64,000 nucleotides of DNA from the NCBI GenBank assembly GCA_938085425.1, contig CALKGQ010000011.1, forward strand, positions 186,001-250,000. Direction: 5' to 3'. Numbering within the stretch: the stretch's first letter is position 1; each line of letters starts with the position of its first letter. The notes under the pieces are model-generated. The model saw only the letters and a program-made list of their open reading frames with translations. It was not told where the DNA came from and made no database searches. This document shows, one piece after another, positions 13,044 to 22,273 of this stretch. Both the position numbers and the translations under genes were made by a program. This DNA comes from an uncultured Flavobacteriales bacterium (lineage in GTDB: Bacteria; Bacteroidota; Bacteroidia; Flavobacteriales_D; Sanyastnellaceae).

Positions 13044-13654
13044 GACCACCTCAAGGTTTCCATCAGTTTCCGAACGTCGGCTTCCATGCGGTCCAAGACA
13101 GGAGCAGTGCTGTCGGGATTGGGGCGGTGGTTGAAGTAGAGGGACCCACGCATGAAATGCTGGGTGCTGTCGGTGATGTAGAACTGCAATGGGGTGGCCA
13201 CAGGGCCTTCCAGAAGAAAGATCATGCCGGATTTCCCGGGAAGTTCAAAGGACTGCCTGCGGATGCCGGTGGCCGCGGATTCGTGGCCAAACACCAGCGA
13301 CTGTGAGTCCTTCATCAATTGATGAAAATCTGTCCCCACTTCTCGTTCCGTGCAGTGGATCCTTGCTTGAAAACGAGGGAACGCCAAGTTGTACCAACAT
13401 CCTTCTTGTTGTGCAGTGGGGGTCCTCAATTCAACCTTGGCGTGACGCGGCAGCCGAAACGAGGTTCCGCATGATGACGTGTAGGCAGAGGTGGCCGTGT
13501 CGGGCAAAGTGAGACGCACCTGCCCAAGAGGTTTGGGCACCATGGCGTCTTCCGGTTGTACCCACCATCCCACTGCAGCGAGCAGCGCAACCATGCCCGC
13601 CATCCATGGCCAAAGTTTTCTGTTCACCGTTGAATTTGCAGGTTGGCCCATCAT
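13040..13654 (-). CDS. gldD: gliding motility protein GldD
   Basis: GldD is needed for gliding and type IX secretion in Flavobacterium and is normally a lipoprotein. This 204-residue copy matches the family pattern: MVPKPLGQVRLTLPD after the N-terminal hydrophobic segment, then CWYNLAFPRFQARIHCT, FGHESAATGI, and TDSTQHFMRGSLYFNHRPN with DSTAPVLDRMEADVRKLMET at the end. It lies immediately after gldE with a 4-base overlap, the usual pairing. Oddly, the N-terminal hydrophobic stretch (residues about 16-32) has no Cys in a lipobox position, so it may be anchored by an uncleaved helix. Confidence 0.92.
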   Translation of the reverse strand: MMGQPANSTVNRKLWPWMAGMVALLAAVGWWVQPEDAMVPKPLGQVRLTLPDTATSAYTSSCGTSFRLPRHAKVELRTPTAQQEGCWYNLAFPRFQARIHCTEREVGTDFHQLMKDSQSLVFGHESAATGIRRQSFELPGKSGMIFLLEGPVATPLQFYITDSTQHFMRGSLYFNHRPNPDSTAPVLDRMEADVRKLMETLRWS

Positions 13655-15000
13655 GTTTGGTCTAAGGTCGAGGGGCCTCCTTCCGATGCCTCAGTGGAGG
13701 GCAGCACCACCTTGATTCGATGAATCCTGCGCGCATCGCCAGCATCTACCTGCAGCGTCGTTCCTTGAAACGAGACCGACTCTCCACGTCGAAGCATGCG
13801 GCCGGATTGCTCCACCATGAATCCGCCCAAGGTGTCGCTTTCGCCTTTGGAGGCTTCCCAAACTTCCTCGTCGAGGCCCAAAATGCGGTAAGCATCGAGC
13901 AACGGCGTCTTCGCTTCCATCAAATACGTGCGCTCGTCCAAAATGGAATGCATCACATCCTCGTCGTCGAATTCGTCGGCGATTTCTCCTACAATTTCTT
14001 CCATCACATCCTCCAAGGTGACCAAACCACTGGTCCCTCCATACTCGTCCACCACGAGTGCCAGGTGCACCTTCCGTTCTTGGAATTCTCGGAGAAGGTC
14101 ATCGATTTTCTTGCTCTCGGGAATGTACATGGGGGGACGAATGACCGCCGTCCAATCCACGTCCTCGTGGTGCAGCAGGGGAAGCAAGTCCTTGACGTGA
14201 AGCACCCCAGCAATGTTGTCAATCGACCCGTCTTGGATGGGGATTCGGCTGAACCCAGAGGCGACAATGGTGGCGCGAACATGCTTCCAAGGGTCCTCTT
14301 TGGAAAAGGAGACCATGTCCGTGCGTGGGGTCATGACTTGCTTGGCGTCCTTGGACCCAAAGCTGACAATGCCCTCCAAAATCCGCTGCTCATCAGGCGT
14401 GCGGCCGGCGTTGTCAGTCAGCTCCAAGGCCTGCTCCAGGTCTTCAACGCTTACCTCGCGGTTGGGGCTGGCCAATTGCCGGTCCATCCATCGTCCCATG
14501 CCGACGAGAGGCTGCCAAACAGGCCGGAAAATCCGTTGCAAGAACTGCAAAGGCGCCGCGGTGAATTTGGCCAAACGAACGCCAAATTTCGTGGCGTAAA
14601 TCTTGGGGACCACTTCCCCAAACAGCACCAACAAAAAGGTGACGCCGACCACGTGAACCAGGGTGCCGAGCCAAGCCGGCATCGACTGGCTGGGCAACAA
14701 GGCTTCTGCCACCACAGTGGCCATCAAAACGATGGAGATGTTGACCAAATTGTTCACCACCAAAATGGTGGCGAGCAAATTTCGAGGCCCGTCGGTCGGG
14801 TTGGGTGAGCGCATCAGGCGCAGCACCTTTTGGGCCCCAGGCGAGTCTTCTTGCTCCAACTCGTGCAGTGCCTGAGGCGACAAGTTGAAAAAGGCGACCT
14901 CTGAACCTGAAACAAGGGCAGAAACCACAAGCAAAAGCCCCACGACCACAAGGGTAGGGGCATGGTCCATCCAAGGAATGCCGACGGAAGCCGTATTCAT
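13651..15000 (-). CDS. gldE: gliding motility-associated protein GldE (CNNM/CBS membrane protein)
   Basis: A 449-residue membrane protein of the HlyC/CorC family. The N-terminal DUF21 transmembrane domain carries SALVSGSEVAFFNLSP and VVNNLVNISIV. Two CBS domains follow, with VMTPRTDMVSFS and VVDEYGGTSGLVTLEDVMEE, then a C-terminal CorC_HlyC domain with GESDTLGGFMVE. In Flavobacterium GldE works with GldD and GldB. The direct gldE-gldD neighbourhood and the ssb and mutY genes upstream are the conserved context that separates GldE from the general CorC copy at 7187-8476. Confidence 0.92.
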   Translation of the reverse strand: MNTASVGIPWMDHAPTLVVVGLLLVVSALVSGSEVAFFNLSPQALHELEQEDSPGAQKVLRLMRSPNPTDGPRNLLATILVVNNLVNISIVLMATVVAEALLPSQSMPAWLGTLVHVVGVTFLLVLFGEVVPKIYATKFGVRLAKFTAAPLQFLQRIFRPVWQPLVGMGRWMDRQLASPNREVSVEDLEQALELTDNAGRTPDEQRILEGIVSFGSKDAKQVMTPRTDMVSFSKEDPWKHVRATIVASGFSRIPIQDGSIDNIAGVLHVKDLLPLLHHEDVDWTAVIRPPMYIPESKKIDDLLREFQERKVHLALVVDEYGGTSGLVTLEDVMEEIVGEIADEFDDEDVMHSILDERTYLMEAKTPLLDAYRILGLDEEVWEASKGESDTLGGFMVEQSGRMLRRGESVSFQGTTLQVDAGDARRIHRIKVVLPSTEASEGGPSTLDQT

Positions 15001-15015
15001 TCAGGCAAGGTCCAT

Positions 15016-15531
15016 TCAGAAGGGCAAGTCGTCCGCCTGACCGGCTGTGGCTTGGGCAGCTTGGACAGGTGCCACGGCTGCGGCTGGCGTTGCGGCAGGA
15101 GTTGCGGCCGGGGCTGAAGCCGCAGCAACAGGCGCTGCCGTTGCGGCAGCGGTTTGCTTCGGCGCAGCCGCTTGGGGCTGGGCGTTGTCTCTTCCAGGTG
15201 CTGGGCCCAACAACTGCATGACGTCTGCAACCACCTCAGTAGTGTAGCGATTTGCACCCTGTTGGTCCTGCCACTGTCGGGTCTTCAATTTGCCTTCGAT
15301 GTAGACCTGCGAGCCCGTCTTGAGGTACTTGCCTGCCGTTTCTGCCAGCCCACGCCAAAGCACAACATTGTGCCATTCGGTGGTGGTGACCCGTTCTCCG
15401 GAAGCCCGGTCGGTGTAGGATTCAGAGGTGGCCATGCGCAAGGAGCACACGGCAATGCCGTTGGGGGTGTAGCGCAATTCAGGCTGTTGGCCGAGGTTGC
15501 CTACGAGGATGACTTTGTTGATGCCTGCCAT
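15016..15531 (-). CDS. ssb: single-stranded DNA-binding protein
   Basis: Binds single-stranded DNA in replication and repair. The 171-residue protein has an N-terminal OB fold ([20 protein letters not shown], then [14 protein letters not shown] and [15 protein letters not shown]), a long linker very rich in Ala, Pro and Gln (about residues 118-160), and the acidic tail DDLPF that docks partner proteins. The start is ATG 15529-15531. The nine residues upstream in the open frame overlap mutY. It lies 24 bases after mutY and 15 before gldE. Confidence 0.96.
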
Positions 15532-15554
15532 GCTTCGAAGGTACTGCTTCTCCC

Positions 15555-16622
15555 TCACTCTCTCCTTTGAAGAACAGACAGGAGTTCGTCAAACACCTTT
15601 GTCATCAACCTCGGTCTGGCCTTTTGGCCCAAAACCTCCCAACTCATCGCCGTTCCTCCAACCGATTCTGCAAAGGATTCCAAGGCCTGGATGGTGGGTG
15701 CGCGATGTCCGGTGAATTGCGCCTCGATCCTTTTGTGGGTGAGCAAATGGGTAACAGGTTCGTGCAGTTCGCCAAGCGCAGACATGGCGTCAGGCGGCGA
15801 TTCGGGAAACACCCACATGGTGGGCCATATCCCCGTGGAGGGCCGCTGCAGGGCCACCACCTGATCGCCGCAGGTGACGATGTGCCAATGCAAGTGCCAC
15901 AGGGTGGCTTTCTTTTTTTTCTTTTTGACGGGCAAGCGTTCCAAGGCCTCCGGTTGGTGGGCGGAGGAGCAGTCCGAGGCGAGTGGGCATGCTTGGCAGT
16001 TGGGGGAGCGGGGACTGCACAACAGGGCCCCGAGTTCCATCACAGCTTGGTTGTGGTCGCCGGGATGTTCTGGGTCGAGCAACGCATCTGCGAGGCGCTG
16101 GATTTCTTTTGCGCCTTCAGGTGCGTCGACGGGTTCCGACATCCCCGCCCACCTGGACAGCACGCGCTGCACGTTGCCGTCGACCGCGGCCACGGGAACA
16201 TTGAGCCCAATGGAGGCGATGGCGGCGGAGGTGTAAGGACCTACGCCGGGCAATGCAAGCCAGCCTGAATGGGTGTCGGGGAAATCTCCTGCCTCGTCAA
16301 TGGCCTTCGCAGCTTGGTGCAACAGCCGAGCCCGGCGGTAATACCCCAATCCCTCCCAAGCCTTCATGACATCGTCTTCGGACGCGGCCGCCAAATCGCC
16401 CACAGTGGGAAACAAGTCCATGAAAAGGTGCCACTTGGGGATGCCTGTCTGCACCCTAGTTTGTTGGAGCATGATTTCACTGAGCCACGTTCCATACAAG
16501 GACGGAGAAGTTCTCCACGGCAACGTTCTGGCGGCCTTGGAATACCAACGTCGAAGGGCCAAGCGTGCACTTGAAGCCCTCCGATGGAGGGACACATTTT
16601 GCAGAAAACCCTGGTCATCCAT
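15555..16622 (-). CDS. mutY: A/G-specific adenine DNA glycosylase
   Basis: Removes adenine mispaired with 8-oxoguanine. The HhH-GPD domain has [44 protein letters not shown] and the catalytic [11 protein letters not shown]. An iron-sulfur loop follows with spacing C-x6-C-x2-C-x5-C ([17 protein letters not shown]). The C-terminal domain is NUDIX-like, with [12 protein letters not shown] start at ATG 16620-16622. A further ATG at 16653-16655 would add 11 residues, and the sequence does not decide between them. It heads the minus-strand block and is divergent from the HU gene. Confidence 0.94.
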
Positions 16623-16732
16623 TTCGTTTTCAAAGGTATGGGTGTATTTTCGCACCCCCGAAAACGCGCACTCAAACGCTCGGATTCAGGGATTGAAACC
16701 TTGACAAACAACCTTCAGACCCCTCGCAAATC

Positions 16733-17023
16733 ATGACTAAGGCGGACATCGTAAGCCAAATTTCGGAGCAAACCGGAATGGAAAAAGGAGACGTTCAAGT
16801 GACGGTGGAAGCGTTCATGCGCGCCGTTCGTAGCAACTTGGAAAGTGGTGAAAACGTTTATTTGCGTGGGTTTGGAAGCTTCGTGGTGAAAACCAGAGCG
16901 GCCAAAACAGGACGGAACATTTTGGCGAAAAAGTCCATCCAGATTCCGGCACACAACATTCCTTCGTTCAAACCGAGCAAGGACTTTGTGGAGAATGTCA
17001 AACTCAACGTGAAGGTCAAGTAA
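16733..17023 (+). CDS. HU/IHF-family DNA-binding protein
   Basis: A 96-residue nucleoid protein. The dimerisation helices (MTKADIVSQISEQTG, VEAFMRAVRSNLES) lead into the beta arm motif VYLRGFGSFVVKTRAAKTGRN and the IPAHNIPSFKPSKDF segment. Full family length. It starts a plus-strand run with the TPR gene 6 bases downstream, then a tiny basic gene and rng, and is divergent from mutY. Whether it is an HU or IHF paralogue cannot be settled here. Confidence 0.95.
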   Translation: MTKADIVSQISEQTGMEKGDVQVTVEAFMRAVRSNLESGENVYLRGFGSFVVKTRAAKTGRNILAKKSIQIPAHNIPSFKPSKDFVENVKLNVKVK

Positions 17024-17029
17024 GCATTC

Positions 17030-17641
17030 ATGAAGGTCTCTCGCTCCACATGGGTTTTGGCGGCCGGCGCTTCGGTGTTGGTGGCAGGCATCCTTCTGAT
17101 GCCTCGCACCCCTGCCTCTGCGGAGCAAGTCCATGACCATGACCATGTGGCCCTCGAAGACATTGGCACCGACCCCGTCGACCTCGCTGTGGCCAAGGTC
17201 AATGGGGAAAACCCGATGACAGGCATTCTTGAGTTGCGGGAAATGGCCGACGCCACCCCGCCCAACATGGATGCGGTGCTTTGGTTGGGGCGTTTTTCCG
17301 TGCAGAGCGGTCAGCTCGAAAAGGCGCGTGAGCGTTTTGAGCAGGTCATTGCCGCGGCCCCCGATCGGGTGGAAGCCTACTGGGAGCGGGCCATGTTGGA
17401 CATGGAGGAAGGCTTCTTGGAAGATGCCGTGCAAGGGTTTGACCTTTGCATCTCTGCAGACGAATTGTATGTGAATGGACGATTTTTCAAGGCCCGATGT
17501 CTCGAGGCCATGGACCAAGGTGCACTCGCATTGACTGAATACAAATCCTACCTTCCCGTGGCGCCGGACACTGCCGTGGCCCGCAGCGTGGAAGGCATTA
17601 TCGAACGGCTTGAATCTGAGCTTTCAGGTTCCGGCAATTAA
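17030..17641 (+). CDS. TPR-repeat protein with N-terminal anchor
   Basis: A 203-residue protein with an N-terminal hydrophobic segment (STWVLAAGASVLVAGILLM, about 6-24), either a signal peptide cleaved near SA|EQVHD or an anchor. A His/Asp-rich patch (HDHDH) follows. Two to three TPR-like helix pairs come next, with LWLGRFSVQSGQLEKARERF and AYWERAMLDMEEGFLEDAVQ as the clearest. The gene lies between HU and the small basic protein before rng. No catalytic motif is visible, so it is probably a periplasm-facing scaffold. Confidence 0.82.
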   Translation: MKVSRSTWVLAAGASVLVAGILLMPRTPASAEQVHDHDHVALEDIGTDPVDLAVAKVNGENPMTGILELREMADATPPNMDAVLWLGRFSVQSGQLEKARERFEQVIAAAPDRVEAYWERAMLDMEEGFLEDAVQGFDLCISADELYVNGRFFKARCLEAMDQGALALTEYKSYLPVAPDTAVARSVEGIIERLESELSGSGN

Positions 17642-17652
17642 ACCACCATATC

Positions 17653-17742
17653 ATGCCAAGCGGAAAAAAACGCAAGCGTCACAAGATGGCGACGCACAAG
17701 CGGAAGAAGCGTCTTCGCAAAAACCGTCACAAGAAGAAGTAA
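17653..17742 (+). CDS. 29-residue, extremely basic conserved small protein
   Basis: An ATG-to-TAA frame of 29 residues beginning MPSGKKRKRHKMATHKRKK and ending NRHKKK. About two thirds of the residues are Lys, Arg or His and there is no acidic residue. From memory, a nearly identical tiny protein is common in Bacteroidetes next to an RNase E/G gene, which argues for a real gene rather than chance. The composition suggests it binds RNA, most plausibly as a small ribosome-associated protein, but that is inference. It starts 11 bases after the TPR stop. Confidence 0.78.
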   Translation: MPSGKKRKRHKMATHKRKKRLRKNRHKKK

Positions 17743-17797
17743 TGAGCGTGGTGCGTGGCTGGCCTTGTGCCAGACCCGTGCTGCGTGACTTCATGTG

Positions 17798-19351
17798 ATG
17801 GACGCGGAACTCGTCATCAACTCGACGCCAGCTGGCGTCGACATTGCCCTTCTCGAAGACGGTCAGCTCGTAGAGCTGCACCGAGATCGGGGAGATGTGC
17901 AATACGCCGTGGGCGACATTTATGTCGGTCGCGTCAGAAAAGTCATGCCCAATTTGAATGCGGGGTTTGTGGACGTTGGACATGGGAAGGATGCTTTCCT
18001 TCACCATTCCGATTTGGGTCCACAATTCCAAACGCAGCAGATTTGGGTCAAACGTGTCATGTCGGGCAAGCAGCCGACCTCTGACATCAGTCAATTCAAG
18101 AGAGAGGCAGACATTGACCGCAAGGGAAAGATGAAGGACTATGTGTCCGCATCTCAACTCGTGTTGGTTCAAGTTGCCAAAGAGCCCATCAGCACCAAGG
18201 GTCCGCGTCTGACCGCTGAGGTCAGCTTGCCAGGTCGATACCTGGTGCTCGTGCCCTTCAGCGACAAAGTGAGCCTTTCTTCTAGGATCAAGGGAGACAA
18301 AGAACGGACGCGTTTGCGCCGTTTGATGCAGAGCATCCAGCCTCCGGGTTTTGGCATCATCGTGCGAACGGTGGCTGAAAACAAAGGATCGGCAGATTTG
18401 CACAGCGACTTGTCCGACCTGGTCGACCGTTGGAAAAAGCTCTACGACAACCTCAAAAATGGGAAGCCAGGCAAGAGAGTGTTGGGGGAGGTGAACAAGG
18501 TGAGTGTGGTGCTGCGCGACGTCATGTCGTCGGACTGCAAAGCCATCCATGTCAACGATCCCCGTGTGGCGGATGAAGTGAAGGAATTCGTGGCCAACAT
18601 CAAGGCCGGGGATGACAGCATGGTGAAAATCAGCCGTGCCAAAGACCTGTTCAACGCCATGTCCCTTCACCGACAAATCAAGGCAGCCTTTGGCCGTCAG
18701 GTGAATTTGCGCAGTGGTTCGTATTTGATTGTGGAGCAAACCGAGGCCATGCACGTCATCGACGTGAACAGCGGTGGCCGCAAGAAAGGAGCTTCAAGCC
18801 AAGAAGAAAATGCCCTGATCACCAATTTGGATGTGGTCAACGAGATTGCCCGTGTGCTCCGCTTGCGGGACATGGGGGGCATCATCGCCATCGATTTCAT
18901 CGACATGGCCAAGCGTGAGCACAACAAGCAGCTCACCGACGCCTTGCGTGCTGCCATGAAGAATGACAAGGCCAAGCACAACATTGCTGTGCCAAGTCGC
19001 TTTGGGGTGGTGGAGTTGACCCGTCAGCGCGTTCGGGATGTCGCCCAAGTTTCTGCCACCGATGCGTGCCCAGCTTGCAACGGAACGGGAAAAGTGGAGG
19101 CCAGCATCTTGATCACCGACCGGATCGATTCAGCCCTCAAATACCTTGCAGAGGGAGAAAACCGGAAGCGCATGACCCTCATGACGCATCCAATCCTGGA
19201 GGCCTACATCACCAAGGGGTGGTGGAAGTCCATCCGCAAGGAATGGGAGAAATCCTTGGGAATCAAATTGTCCATCGAGTCCAACTCCAACTTGGAGATT
19301 CTGGAATACCACGTCTACAACGCCTTGGGCGAAGACGTGACGCCCGACTGA
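17798..19351 (+). CDS. rng: ribonuclease E/G
   Basis: Single-strand endoribonuclease for rRNA maturation and mRNA decay, 517 residues, close to RNase G length. The S1 RNA-binding domain is N-terminal (VGDIYVGRVRKVMPNLNAGF, GKDAFLHHSDL). The catalytic domain carries the two Asp-bearing motifs MHVIDVNSGG and IIAIDFIDM. The zinc-link Cys pair is CPACNGTGK near residue 427. The start is ATG 17798-17800, preceded directly by an in-frame GTG. No long C-terminal scaffold is present, so it resembles RNase G more than RNase E. Confidence 0.94.
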   Translation: MDAELVINSTPAGVDIALLEDGQLVELHRDRGDVQYAVGDIYVGRVRKVMPNLNAGFVDVGHGKDAFLHHSDLGPQFQTQQIWVKRVMSGKQPTSDISQFKREADIDRKGKMKDYVSASQLVLVQVAKEPISTKGPRLTAEVSLPGRYLVLVPFSDKVSLSSRIKGDKERTRLRRLMQSIQPPGFGIIVRTVAENKGSADLHSDLSDLVDRWKKLYDNLKNGKPGKRVLGEVNKVSVVLRDVMSSDCKAIHVNDPRVADEVKEFVANIKAGDDSMVKISRAKDLFNAMSLHRQIKAAFGRQVNLRSGSYLIVEQTEAMHVIDVNSGGRKKGASSQEENALITNLDVVNEIARVLRLRDMGGIIAIDFIDMAKREHNKQLTDALRAAMKNDKAKHNIAVPSRFGVVELTRQRVRDVAQVSATDACPACNGTGKVEASILITDRIDSALKYLAEGENRKRMTLMTHPILEAYITKGWWKSIRKEWEKSLGIKLSIESNSNLEILEYHVYNALGEDVTPD

Positions 19352-19357
19352 CAACAT

Positions 19358-19387
19358 CCCGTCTCTCGCTTATGAGCGAGGGGCGGG
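19358..19387. terminator. hairpin between convergent rng and HD hydrolase genes
   Basis: CCCGTCTCTCGC at 19358-19369 pairs with GCGAGGGGCGGG at 19376-19387, giving a 12-pair stem with a few G-U wobbles and a six-base loop. It spans the gap between two genes that face each other and overlaps the last codons of the HD gene. There is no T-run, so termination is inferred from stem and position only. Confidence 0.45.
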
Positions 19388-20614
19388 TTGCAGTTCTTTG
19401 GGGTAACACAAAAAGCTTTTTTCGACAGGTTTGCTCAGCAATTGCAAGCTGAGGTGGTCGTTCGCTTCCGCAAAGTCGCGGACCGTGCCATCCTTGTACA
19501 GGACCAAAATTCCTCGCGGAACGTAGGCTTTGTTGTCGATCCGGGCATTGCTCACCAGGAAAGAGGCTTCTTCCTTGGAAAGCCCAAAGTATTGGGAGGT
19601 GGCCTGCACACGCTCTTCGACCTCGGCCTCTCCAAAGGGCTCGGGCCTCAATTCGATGCGGAACAACCCGCGGTCCAGCAATCGGGCGCTTAACATGGCC
19701 AAGACCCGATCGTCGTGGTGCCGCCAGGCCTTCATCGCCACAAAGATGTCGCTGTCGTCCAATTCACAGAACCGCTCCAGGACTTCAGGGTCGGCCAAAA
19801 ACTTCGCCCGGTCTAGGTCGTCGTGGAGGAAGAGGGAAAGTGCGGGCGATGCAAAGACCGGCTCGCCTTTTCGGGCGAGGTACTTGGCCCGCCTCAACAC
19901 CAACATGAGCATGTGTTCGGCACTCAAAACGGTTCGGTGCAGGTAGACTTGCCAGTACATGAGGCGTCGGGCCACCACGAATTTTTCGATAGAGTAGATG
20001 GCCTTTTCTTCCACGACCAGCTGGCCGTCGACCACGTCGAGCATTTTCAAGATCCGCTCGCTGCCGACCTTGCCCTCCGTGACCCCGCTGTAGAAACTGT
20101 CCCTGGCGAGGTAATCCAAACGGTCCATGTCCAATTGGCTGCTGACCAGTTGGTGCAGAAATGCTTTGGGGTGGTGGTCGTTGAAGATTTCTATCGCCAT
20201 GTCAAGGGCGCCTCCAAACTCTTCGTTCAAGCGACCCATGATGAGCGCGCTCACATCTTCGTGATGCACGCCTTGGACGATGCTGTGCTCGAGGGCGTGG
20301 CTGAAGGGTCCATGGCCTACGTCGTGGAGCAAGATGGCCAGGCATGCGCCTTCCGCTTCTTCCTCCGTGATGGCCACCCCTTTGTTGCGCAGGCTGTCAA
20401 TGGCCTCTTGCATGAGGTGCATGCAGCCAACGGCGTGGTGAAAACGGTTGTGGACGGCGCCTGGATAGACCAAATGCGACAGCCCAAGTTGGGAGATGCG
20501 CCTCAACCGCTGCATGAACCGGTGGTCCATGAGGTCCAAGGCGCGCTCGTGGCGGAGGGTGACGAACCCGTAGACCGGGTCGTTCAGAATTTTGTGGCGG
20601 TTCACCTTGCTCAT
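19370..20614 (-). CDS. HD-domain phosphohydrolase (dNTPase-like)
   Basis: A 414-residue HD-superfamily protein related to dGTP triphosphohydrolases and SAMHD1-like enzymes. Metal ligands are visible in VHNRFHHAVGCMHL (His near residue 60) and ILLHDVGHGPFSHALEH (HD pair near residue 97), with a third Asp in SSQLDMDRLDYLARDS (about 167-173). The opening NDPVYGFV is typical of this subgroup. It is probably a cytoplasmic nucleotide hydrolase; the substrate cannot be read from the sequence. It is divergent from porX. Confidence 0.87.
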   Translation of the reverse strand: MSKVNRHKILNDPVYGFVTLRHERALDLMDHRFMQRLRRISQLGLSHLVYPGAVHNRFHHAVGCMHLMQEAIDSLRNKGVAITEEEAEGACLAILLHDVGHGPFSHALEHSIVQGVHHEDVSALIMGRLNEEFGGALDMAIEIFNDHHPKAFLHQLVSSQLDMDRLDYLARDSFYSGVTEGKVGSERILKMLDVVDGQLVVEEKAIYSIEKFVVARRLMYWQVYLHRTVLSAEHMLMLVLRRAKYLARKGEPVFASPALSLFLHDDLDRAKFLADPEVLERFCELDDSDIFVAMKAWRHHDDRVLAMLSARLLDRGLFRIELRPEPFGEAEVEERVQATSQYFGLSKEEASFLVSNARIDNKAYVPRGILVLYKDGTVRDFAEANDHLSLQLLSKPVEKSFLCYPKELQPAPRS

Positions 20615-20710: not shown

Positions 20711-22273
20711 ATGGGACGACCACACATTCTTTGGGCAGACGACGAAATCGACTTGTTGAAGCCGCACATCATGTTTTTGGAGGAAAAGGGATACGATGTG
20801 ACCGGGGTCAACAGCGGGGTGGAAGCCCTCGAAGAGGTAGAAGCCCACTCGTTTGATGTGGTTTTTTTGGACGAAAACATGCCCGGCATCCACGGCATTG
20901 AAACCCTGCAAAGGATCAAGGACAAACGGCCAGAGCTGCCTGTCATCATGATCACCAAAAGCGAGGAAGAGCACATCATGGAGGAGGCCATTGGCTCCAA
21001 AATCAGCGACTACCTCATCAAGCCAGTCAACCCCCATCAGATCTTGCTGGCCGTCAAGAAGACATTGGACAACCGCCGTTTGCAAGGGGAGCAGGCCCAA
21101 TCGACCTACATGCGGGAGTTTCGCGAACTCGCCATGAAGCTCGGCGGCAGGCTCAACGCAGACGAATGGACAGAGATTTACAAGCGATTGTGCCACTGGC
21201 ATGCCGAGCTTGGGGGTTCGGGGGACAGTGGCATGCTGGAGATTTTGGAAAACCAGCATGCCGAGGCGAACCAGCAATTTGCCAGGTTCGTGGAGGCGCA
21301 TTACGAGCATTGGATGACGGGCCTCGAACAGGCGCCCATGATGTCCCACCAGCTCTTGCCTGAATGGCTGCCCGAGGCGGTCAAAGGGGCAGAAGGCCGA
21401 CCGGTGTTTCTGGTGGTCATTGACAATTTGCGTTGGGACCAATGGCGCACCATTGCGCCATCCTTGGGGACGGATTGGACCGTGAAGGAGGAGAAGTCCT
21501 ACTTCAGCATTTTGCCCACGGCCACCCAGTATGCCAGAAACGCCCTTTTTGCCGGAATGACCCCGGGGGACATTGCCAGGGTCATGCCAAAGCTTTGGAT
21601 TGGGGAGCATGAACAAGGGTCCAAGAATGCCCACGAAGAGGCCTTGCAAAAGGCGTTGTTTGACCGGTTGGGCATCGCGGGGAAAACCTCCTACCACAAG
21701 ATCACCAACTTGCAAGCAGGCAAGCGGTTGGCAGACAAATTCCACGAATTGAAGGGCCAGCAAATCACCACGGTGGTGTACAATTTTGTCGACATGCTGA
21801 GCCATGCACGCTCCGAGATGGACATGATCAAGGAGCTCGCGGACGACGAAGCGGCCTACCGCAGTTTGACCTTGTCTTGGTTTGCCCACAGTCCGTTGAA
21901 GGACATGATGGACGCCATGGCCCAAATGGGCGGCCGCATGATCCTCACCACAGACCATGGCACCATGCGCGTGGACCATCCCGTGGAGGTCCGTGGGGAC
22001 AGGGAAACCAACAGCAATCTCCGTTACAAGGTGGGGCGCAATCTGGGCTATGACCCTGAAGAGGTCATGGAGGTGCGGCACCCCGAGCGTGTGGGCTTGC
22101 CCAAGCCCAATGTTTCGAGCAGCTACATCTTTGCCAAGACCCGCGATTTCTTGGTCTACCCCAACAATGCAGCGAAGTACACGAAGACGTTCCGGGACAC
22201 CTTCCAGCACGGCGGGGTGAGCATGGAGGAGGTGATCATCCCATGGGTGGTTTTGGACCCCAAAGGCGCTTGA
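20711..22273 (+). CDS. porX: T9SS regulator PorX (response regulator with PglZ domain)
   Basis: A 520-residue fused protein. The receiver domain spans residues 1-120, with the acidic pocket WADDE, phospho-acceptor Asp54 in VVFLDENMPG, and ISDYLIKPVNP carrying the conserved Lys. A helical linker leads to a PglZ/alkaline-phosphatase-type domain with VVIDNLRWDQW and the metal-binding TDHGTMRVDHPVEV. PorX with sensor PorY regulates type IX secretion genes in Porphyromonas. The start is ATG 20711, where family similarity begins; the long open frame upstream is antisense to the HD gene. tsaE follows after a single base. Confidence 0.95.
   Translation: MGRPHILWADDEIDLLKPHIMFLEEKGYDVTGVNSGVEALEEVEAHSFDVVFLDENMPGIHGIETLQRIKDKRPELPVIMITKSEEEHIMEEAIGSKISDYLIKPVNPHQILLAVKKTLDNRRLQGEQAQSTYMREFRELAMKLGGRLNADEWTEIYKRLCHWHAELGGSGDSGMLEILENQHAEANQQFARFVEAHYEHWMTGLEQAPMMSHQLLPEWLPEAVKGAEGRPVFLVVIDNLRWDQWRTIAPSLGTDWTVKEEKSYFSILPTATQYARNALFAGMTPGDIARVMPKLWIGEHEQGSKNAHEEALQKALFDRLGIAGKTSYHKITNLQAGKRLADKFHELKGQQITTVVYNFVDMLSHARSEMDMIKELADDEAAYRSLTLSWFAHSPLKDMMDAMAQMGGRMILTTDHGTMRVDHPVEVRGDRETNSNLRYKVGRNLGYDPEEVMEVRHPERVGLPKPNVSSSYIFAKTRDFLVYPNNAAKYTKTFRDTFQHGGVSMEEVIIPWVVLDPKGA

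What the first reader, a model, noticed from the sequence alone, without database searches (positions are those of the whole stretch)
17653..17742. 29-residue basic protein next to rng
The sequence is almost entirely Lys, Arg and His and lies between a TPR gene and RNase E/G. It is too short for normal gene callers. My recollection is that it recurs in Bacteroidetes in the same place, which suggests a small ribosomal or RNA-binding protein.
Basis: partly seen in the sequence, partly recalled or inferred. Interest (0 to 1): 0.6.

Follow-up and report, generated by a model that had tools for sequence, protein, structure and literature searches.

The report
Ribosomal protein bS22, tiny gene
The tiny, very basic gene is real and encodes a known ribosomal protein, bS22, of the small ribosome subunit; it is widespread in this bacterial phylum and easily missed because it is so short.

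Summary
Window 17653-17742 (+) is a real gene. Its 29-residue product (20 of 29 residues are Lys/Arg/His) is the small-subunit ribosomal protein bS22. It aligns end to end with bS22-type chains in solved ribosomes: 9i5v (1.6e-10), the Flavobacterium johnsoniae ribosome 7jil (5.5e-10) and 8fmw (9.9e-6). It is found in 288 of 296 sampled genomes of the phylum. Codon differences across 52 relatives are 625 synonymous to 71 non-synonymous. Outside the class bS22 is often still beside HU (33 of 48) but never beside rng (0 of 48).

The likely mechanism, taken from published homologues, is a bent helix inserted among 16S helices h2/h27/h44/h45 that also touches 23S rRNA. The protein is already known. 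Small extras are the class-specific HU-(TPR)-bS22-rng cassette and three species of one genus in which bS22 has disappeared from an otherwise intact locus.

The parts
17653..17742 (+). bS22 gene (29 aa, ATG to TAA), 30S ribosomal protein S22
   Evidence: phmmer to 9i5v_10, 7jil_5 and 8fmw_V over the full length or nearly so; profile of 18 homologues to the same chains; 288 of 296 phylum genomes
17798..19351 (+). rng, RNase G/E family ribonuclease, 55 nt downstream of bS22; conserved partner within the class
   Evidence: PF10150 and TIGR00757; adjacency counts
17030..17641 (+). TPR-repeat protein, 11 nt upstream of bS22
   Evidence: PF14559; similar protein found upstream in 34 of 52 named loci that hold bS22
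16733..17023 (+). HU/IHF-family DNA-binding protein, first gene of the cassette
   Evidence: PF00216 E 8.9e-29; HU found upstream in 50 of 52 named loci and 33 of 48 out-of-class loci

Best explanation
The gene encodes ribosomal protein bS22, a structural part of the 30S subunit. The 29-residue, strongly basic peptide folds as a bent helix buried in a 16S rRNA pocket formed by h2, h27, h44 and h45 below the decoding centre, and also contacts 23S rRNA (H67 or H68) as a small inter-subunit contact. It most likely stabilises the upper part of h44 and the neck of the 30S. Shown here: the coding nature, the identity by sequence, the conservation and the gene order. Inferred from published homologues: the binding site and the contacts. 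Inferred more weakly: any effect on initiation without Shine-Dalgarno sequences, and joint expression with rng.
For: Full-length matches to chains named bS22/S22 in solved ribosomes, confirmed with a profile. Match in 288 of 296 phylum genomes, including 73 of 73 in-class genomes (hand count from the table). Strong purifying selection. Invariant columns M1, K6, K11, H15-K19, R22, R25-K27 across 18 divergent members. Papers: PMC10618245 (passages) describes Borrelia bS22 in the h2/h27/h44/h45 pocket touching H68, closer to F. johnsoniae bS22 than to the mycobacterial one; PMC10085706 (passages) describes C. acnes bS22 between h27, h44 and h45 with contact to H67; PMC9976891 (one passage) identifies 7jil as the F. 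johnsoniae ribosome.
Against: There is no Pfam or NCBIfam match for this protein, and Pfam COX24_C does not ring in this genome. The PDB sequence of 7jil_5 carries two depositor names across its five entries (30S S22 and 50S L38); I could not inspect coordinates, so its place on the 30S rests on the passages. Six nearly complete genomes of two genera lack the gene, so it is not indispensable everywhere.
Confidence: 0.96

Rival explanations
1. A basic RNA-binding or nucleoid peptide that is not a ribosomal subunit, for example an accessory factor of RNase G or of HU, given the neighbours.
For: In the class it lies upstream of rng and, nearly always, downstream of HU in the loci examined.
Against: Full-length homologues with two or three substitutions in 29 residues are deposited as chains of ribosomes; outside the class the gene is not next to rng.
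Confidence: 0.03
2. A chance open frame made by a purine-rich stretch in the spacer before rng.
For: Short length; no family model matches.
Against: 625 synonymous to 71 non-synonymous codon differences in 52 relatives; 288 of 296 genomes hold it.
Confidence: 0.005

Closest known systems
bS22 of the Flavobacterium johnsoniae ribosome (PDB 7jil chain 5)
   Same: Same first 11 residues, full-length alignment at 5.5e-10, same phylum
   Different: Three substitutions in the aligned 29 residues (alignment) and one extra C-terminal residue
AURKAIP1/COX24 domain-containing protein of PDB 9i5v/9i5x (organism not looked up)
   Same: Full-length alignment at 1.6e-10
   Different: Two substitutions in 29 residues and one extra C-terminal residue
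bS22 of Borrelia burgdorferi (PDB 8fmw chain V)
   Same: Aligned over residues 1-28 at 9.9e-6; 61% Lys/Arg and h2/h27/h44/h45 pocket per passages of PMC10618245
   Different: Other phylum, GUG start, gene bb0822
Mycobacterial/Cutibacterium bS22, mitochondrial mS38 (AURKAIP1/Cox24), eukaryotic eL41
   Same: Published as occupying the same pocket (passages)
   Different: Sequence only distantly similar: mycobacterial and mitochondrial chains did not come up in the PDB searches; C. acnes bS22 is 37% identical to F. johnsoniae bS22 per PMC10085706

Membership tests
bS22 (30S ribosomal protein S22) | Full-length sequence similarity to a bS22 chain in a solved bacterial ribosome | tested here: met
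   9i5v_10, 7jil_5, 8fmw_V
bS22 (30S ribosomal protein S22) | About 28-35 residues, highly basic, single-copy, widespread in the lineage | tested here: met
   29 aa, 20 K/R/H; 288 of 296 genomes, one match in all but two of these (G209, G212)
bS22 (30S ribosomal protein S22) | Occupies the 16S h27/h44/h45 pocket in the 30S subunit | not testable with these tools
   Inferred from homologues (passages of PMC10618245 and PMC10085706)
Pfam COX24_C (PF08213; mS38/AURKAIP1 C-terminal domain) | Match to the Pfam model over its cut-off | tested here: not met
   No match for P0001 or in the own genome; 5 of 18 divergent homologues match weakly, best E 0.0025, so the link is through relatives only
Rne/Rng neighbour within the class | Directly upstream of rng on the same strand | tested here: met
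   Window; 12 of 12 in-class unnamed loci, 52 of 55 named rng-anchored loci with upstream sequence; 0 of 48 out-of-class loci

The most novel reading that the evidence does not exclude
In this class bS22 came to lie in one transcription unit with RNase G, out of an older HU-bS22 setting, so that the peptide which sits on the 16S helices h2/h44/h45 is made together with a nuclease that trims rRNA precursors. bS22 would then be an assembly-coupled protein whose supply is tied to 16S maturation. The lineages that lost bS22 from an intact locus would show what the ribosome must change to do without it.
Probability: 0.12. Interest if true: 0.45.

Novelty: already known. Interest (0 to 1): 0.2.

Why it matters
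It confirms that a very short gene, easily left out of annotation, is an almost universal ribosomal component in this phylum. It gives a clear neighbourhood rule (between HU/TPR and rng in the class) by which it can be found. The few lineages that lost it are natural test cases for what bS22 does.

Tried and rejected
Pfam and NCBIfam scans of the peptide alone gave nothing. Pfam COX24_C did not ring in the own genome, although it rang in 3 of 14 control genomes, in one of them over the cut-off. Five of 18 divergent homologues match it weakly, so I do not file the window protein under that Pfam model.

A first codon comparison used ten relatives that I had chosen after seeing that their peptides were identical, so its zero non-synonymous count was built in. 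I replaced it with all 52 named loci that hold bS22. That null counts single-base changes equally and ignores codon usage and the relatedness of the loci.

The eight genomes without a match were searched again with the single sequence (no positive control) and with a profile, in which two positive controls rang and the eight stayed empty. Two of them (G248, G295; 310 and 450 contigs) may simply be incomplete. G227, G274 and G286 keep the flanking genes and HU without bS22 between them, as judged against L138 and L139. G147, G195 and G199 keep an HU gene, and no bS22-like frame follows within 500 nt.

Promoter and terminator scans of 16600-19500 gave no promoter-like site and no more terminator-like sites than shuffles; the promoter type of this phylum is not covered by the scan. 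No structure prediction was run: a 29-residue helix folded alone would say nothing about its rRNA pocket.

Literature: no paper held both 'bS22' and 'RNase G', none held '9I5V', and none held 'AURKAIP1 COX24 domain-containing' with 'bacteri'.

Full report
WHAT IS THERE. Bases 17653-17742 (+) hold an ATG-to-TAA frame for MPSGKKRKRHKMATHKRKKRLRKNRHKKK. Twenty of 29 residues are K, R or H; among 975 ORFs of 20 aa or more in the window the next most basic has 44%. It lies in a same-strand run: HU-family protein 16733-17023, TPR protein 17030-17641, this gene, and an Rne/Rng ribonuclease 17798-19351, with gaps of 6, 11 and 55 nt. The own genome (G000) has one copy.

IDENTITY. phmmer against the PDB gives three distinct sequences, all full length or nearly so: 9i5v_10, 'AURKAIP1/COX24 domain-containing protein' (1.6e-10); 7jil_5, '30S ribosomal protein S22 | 50S ribosomal protein L38' (5.5e-10); and 8fmw_V, '30S ribosomal protein bS22' (9.9e-6). 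A profile of 18 divergent homologues (A1) finds the same three and nothing else. The second name on the 7jil sequence comes from the depositors. Passages of PMC10618245 treat F. johnsoniae bS22 (30S pocket) and bL38 (50S) as two different proteins, so I read 'L38' on this sequence as a label from another entry; I could not check coordinates. 7jil is the F. johnsoniae ribosome according to a passage of PMC9976891.

IT IS CODING AND CONSERVED. A search of 296 phylum genomes finds it in 288, in 139 of 140 genera, in one copy in all but two of those genomes (G209, G212); the second match in G212 is an 18-residue piece at a contig end. All 73 genomes labelled own, same family, same order or same class have it (my count from the table). 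Against the 52 named loci that hold it, codon differences from the window copy total 625 synonymous and 71 non-synonymous, and 20 of 52 peptides are identical over the 29 residues. Single-base changes of the sequence would give 50 synonymous to 190 non-synonymous and 12 stops. The loci are related to each other, so these are not independent events.

GENE ORDER. I used the rng protein as the anchor, so that the choice of loci did not depend on bS22, and fetched 59 named loci. Four of these start at or inside rng (L057, L094, L099, L108). Of the 55 with upstream sequence, 52 have bS22 upstream on the same strand, with 17 to 317 nt to rng; the three without are L101 (Bacteroidetes MAG), L102 (Rhodothermaceae MAG) and L104 (Ignavibacteria MAG). 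HU is upstream in 50 of the 52 (L059 is cut short; L100 is, from its name and recall, a reduced symbiont) and a TPR protein similar to the window's in 34. These 12 were not a random draw: ten were best matches and two were picked as divergent. Of 49 out-of-class loci, 48 hold the full peptide (L136 is a contig-end piece); none has rng within reach (loci end about 1.5 kb away or at the contig end), and 33 have HU upstream, two of the others having almost no upstream sequence. So the HU-bS22 neighbourhood reaches beyond the class, while bS22-rng was seen only within it. In L004 the order HU, a protein that by eye has a zinc ribbon and TPR-like repeats, then bS22 is seen outside the class.

START REGION. 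A four-base piece of a Shine-Dalgarno motif lies within 20 nt before bS22 in 0 of 12 in-class and 0 of 52 rng-anchored loci, but in 31 of 48 out-of-class loci. This agrees with the known loss of Shine-Dalgarno use in Bacteroidia (start of the abstract of PMC9976891, seen in the listing).

HOW IT WORKS. From passages of PMC10618245 and PMC10085706: bS22 is a bent helix in a pocket of 16S helices h2, h27, h44 and h45 and touches 23S H68 (Borrelia) or H67 (C. acnes), forming an added inter-subunit contact. Passages of PMC6582356 report that loss of the mitochondrial counterpart mS38 hampers mitoribosome formation and initiation on COX mRNAs, and raise the possibility that bS22 helps leaderless initiation. 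Passages of PMC6133939 place mycobacterial bS22 near the decoding centre. I take the structural role as most likely and the role in initiation as an open idea. PMC10085706 also reports that free C. acnes bS22 inhibits growth of other bacteria in disk tests; nothing here bears on that for this protein.

LOSSES. Eight of 296 genomes lack a match; all lie outside the class. With the profile they stay empty while two control genomes ring. Three (G227, G274, G286) belong to genus g77, other members of which (G081, G151, G250) have bS22 after HU. In the three, the HU gene is 91-95% identical to that of L138, and the genes on both sides align, but no bS22 frame lies between. Three more (G147, G195, G199; genus g97) keep an HU gene without a bS22-like frame in the next 500 nt. 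The other two (G248, G295) are fragmented assemblies.

VERDICT. What I did not find in the listings and passages seen is a description of the class-specific neighbourhood with rng or of the losses, but most subscription papers are not held.

Noticed in passing
L143, L144, L145 (G274, G286, G227) against L138-L140 (G081, G250, G151): In three species of one genus bS22 is missing from an otherwise syntenic locus (HU kept, genes on both sides kept), while sister species have it: apparent secondary loss.
   Followed up: partly
L146, L147, L148 (G147, G199, G195): All three sampled genomes of genus g97 lack a detectable bS22, although an HU gene followed by a frame that by eye is a zinc-ribbon-type protein is present.
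   Followed up: partly
20 nt upstream of bS22 in the loci: Shine-Dalgarno-like 4-mers before bS22 in 31 of 48 out-of-class loci and in none of 64 in-class or rng-anchored loci (12 unnamed, 52 named).
   Followed up: partly
window 13651-16655 (-): Frames that look, from recall only, like a CBS-domain/GldE-type protein, single-strand binding protein and MutY-type glycosylase lie upstream on the other strand.
   Followed up: no
window 19370-20614 (-) and the long frame ending at 22273 (+): From recall only: an HD-domain phosphohydrolase-like frame, and a frame whose later part looks like a PorX-type response regulator.
   Followed up: no
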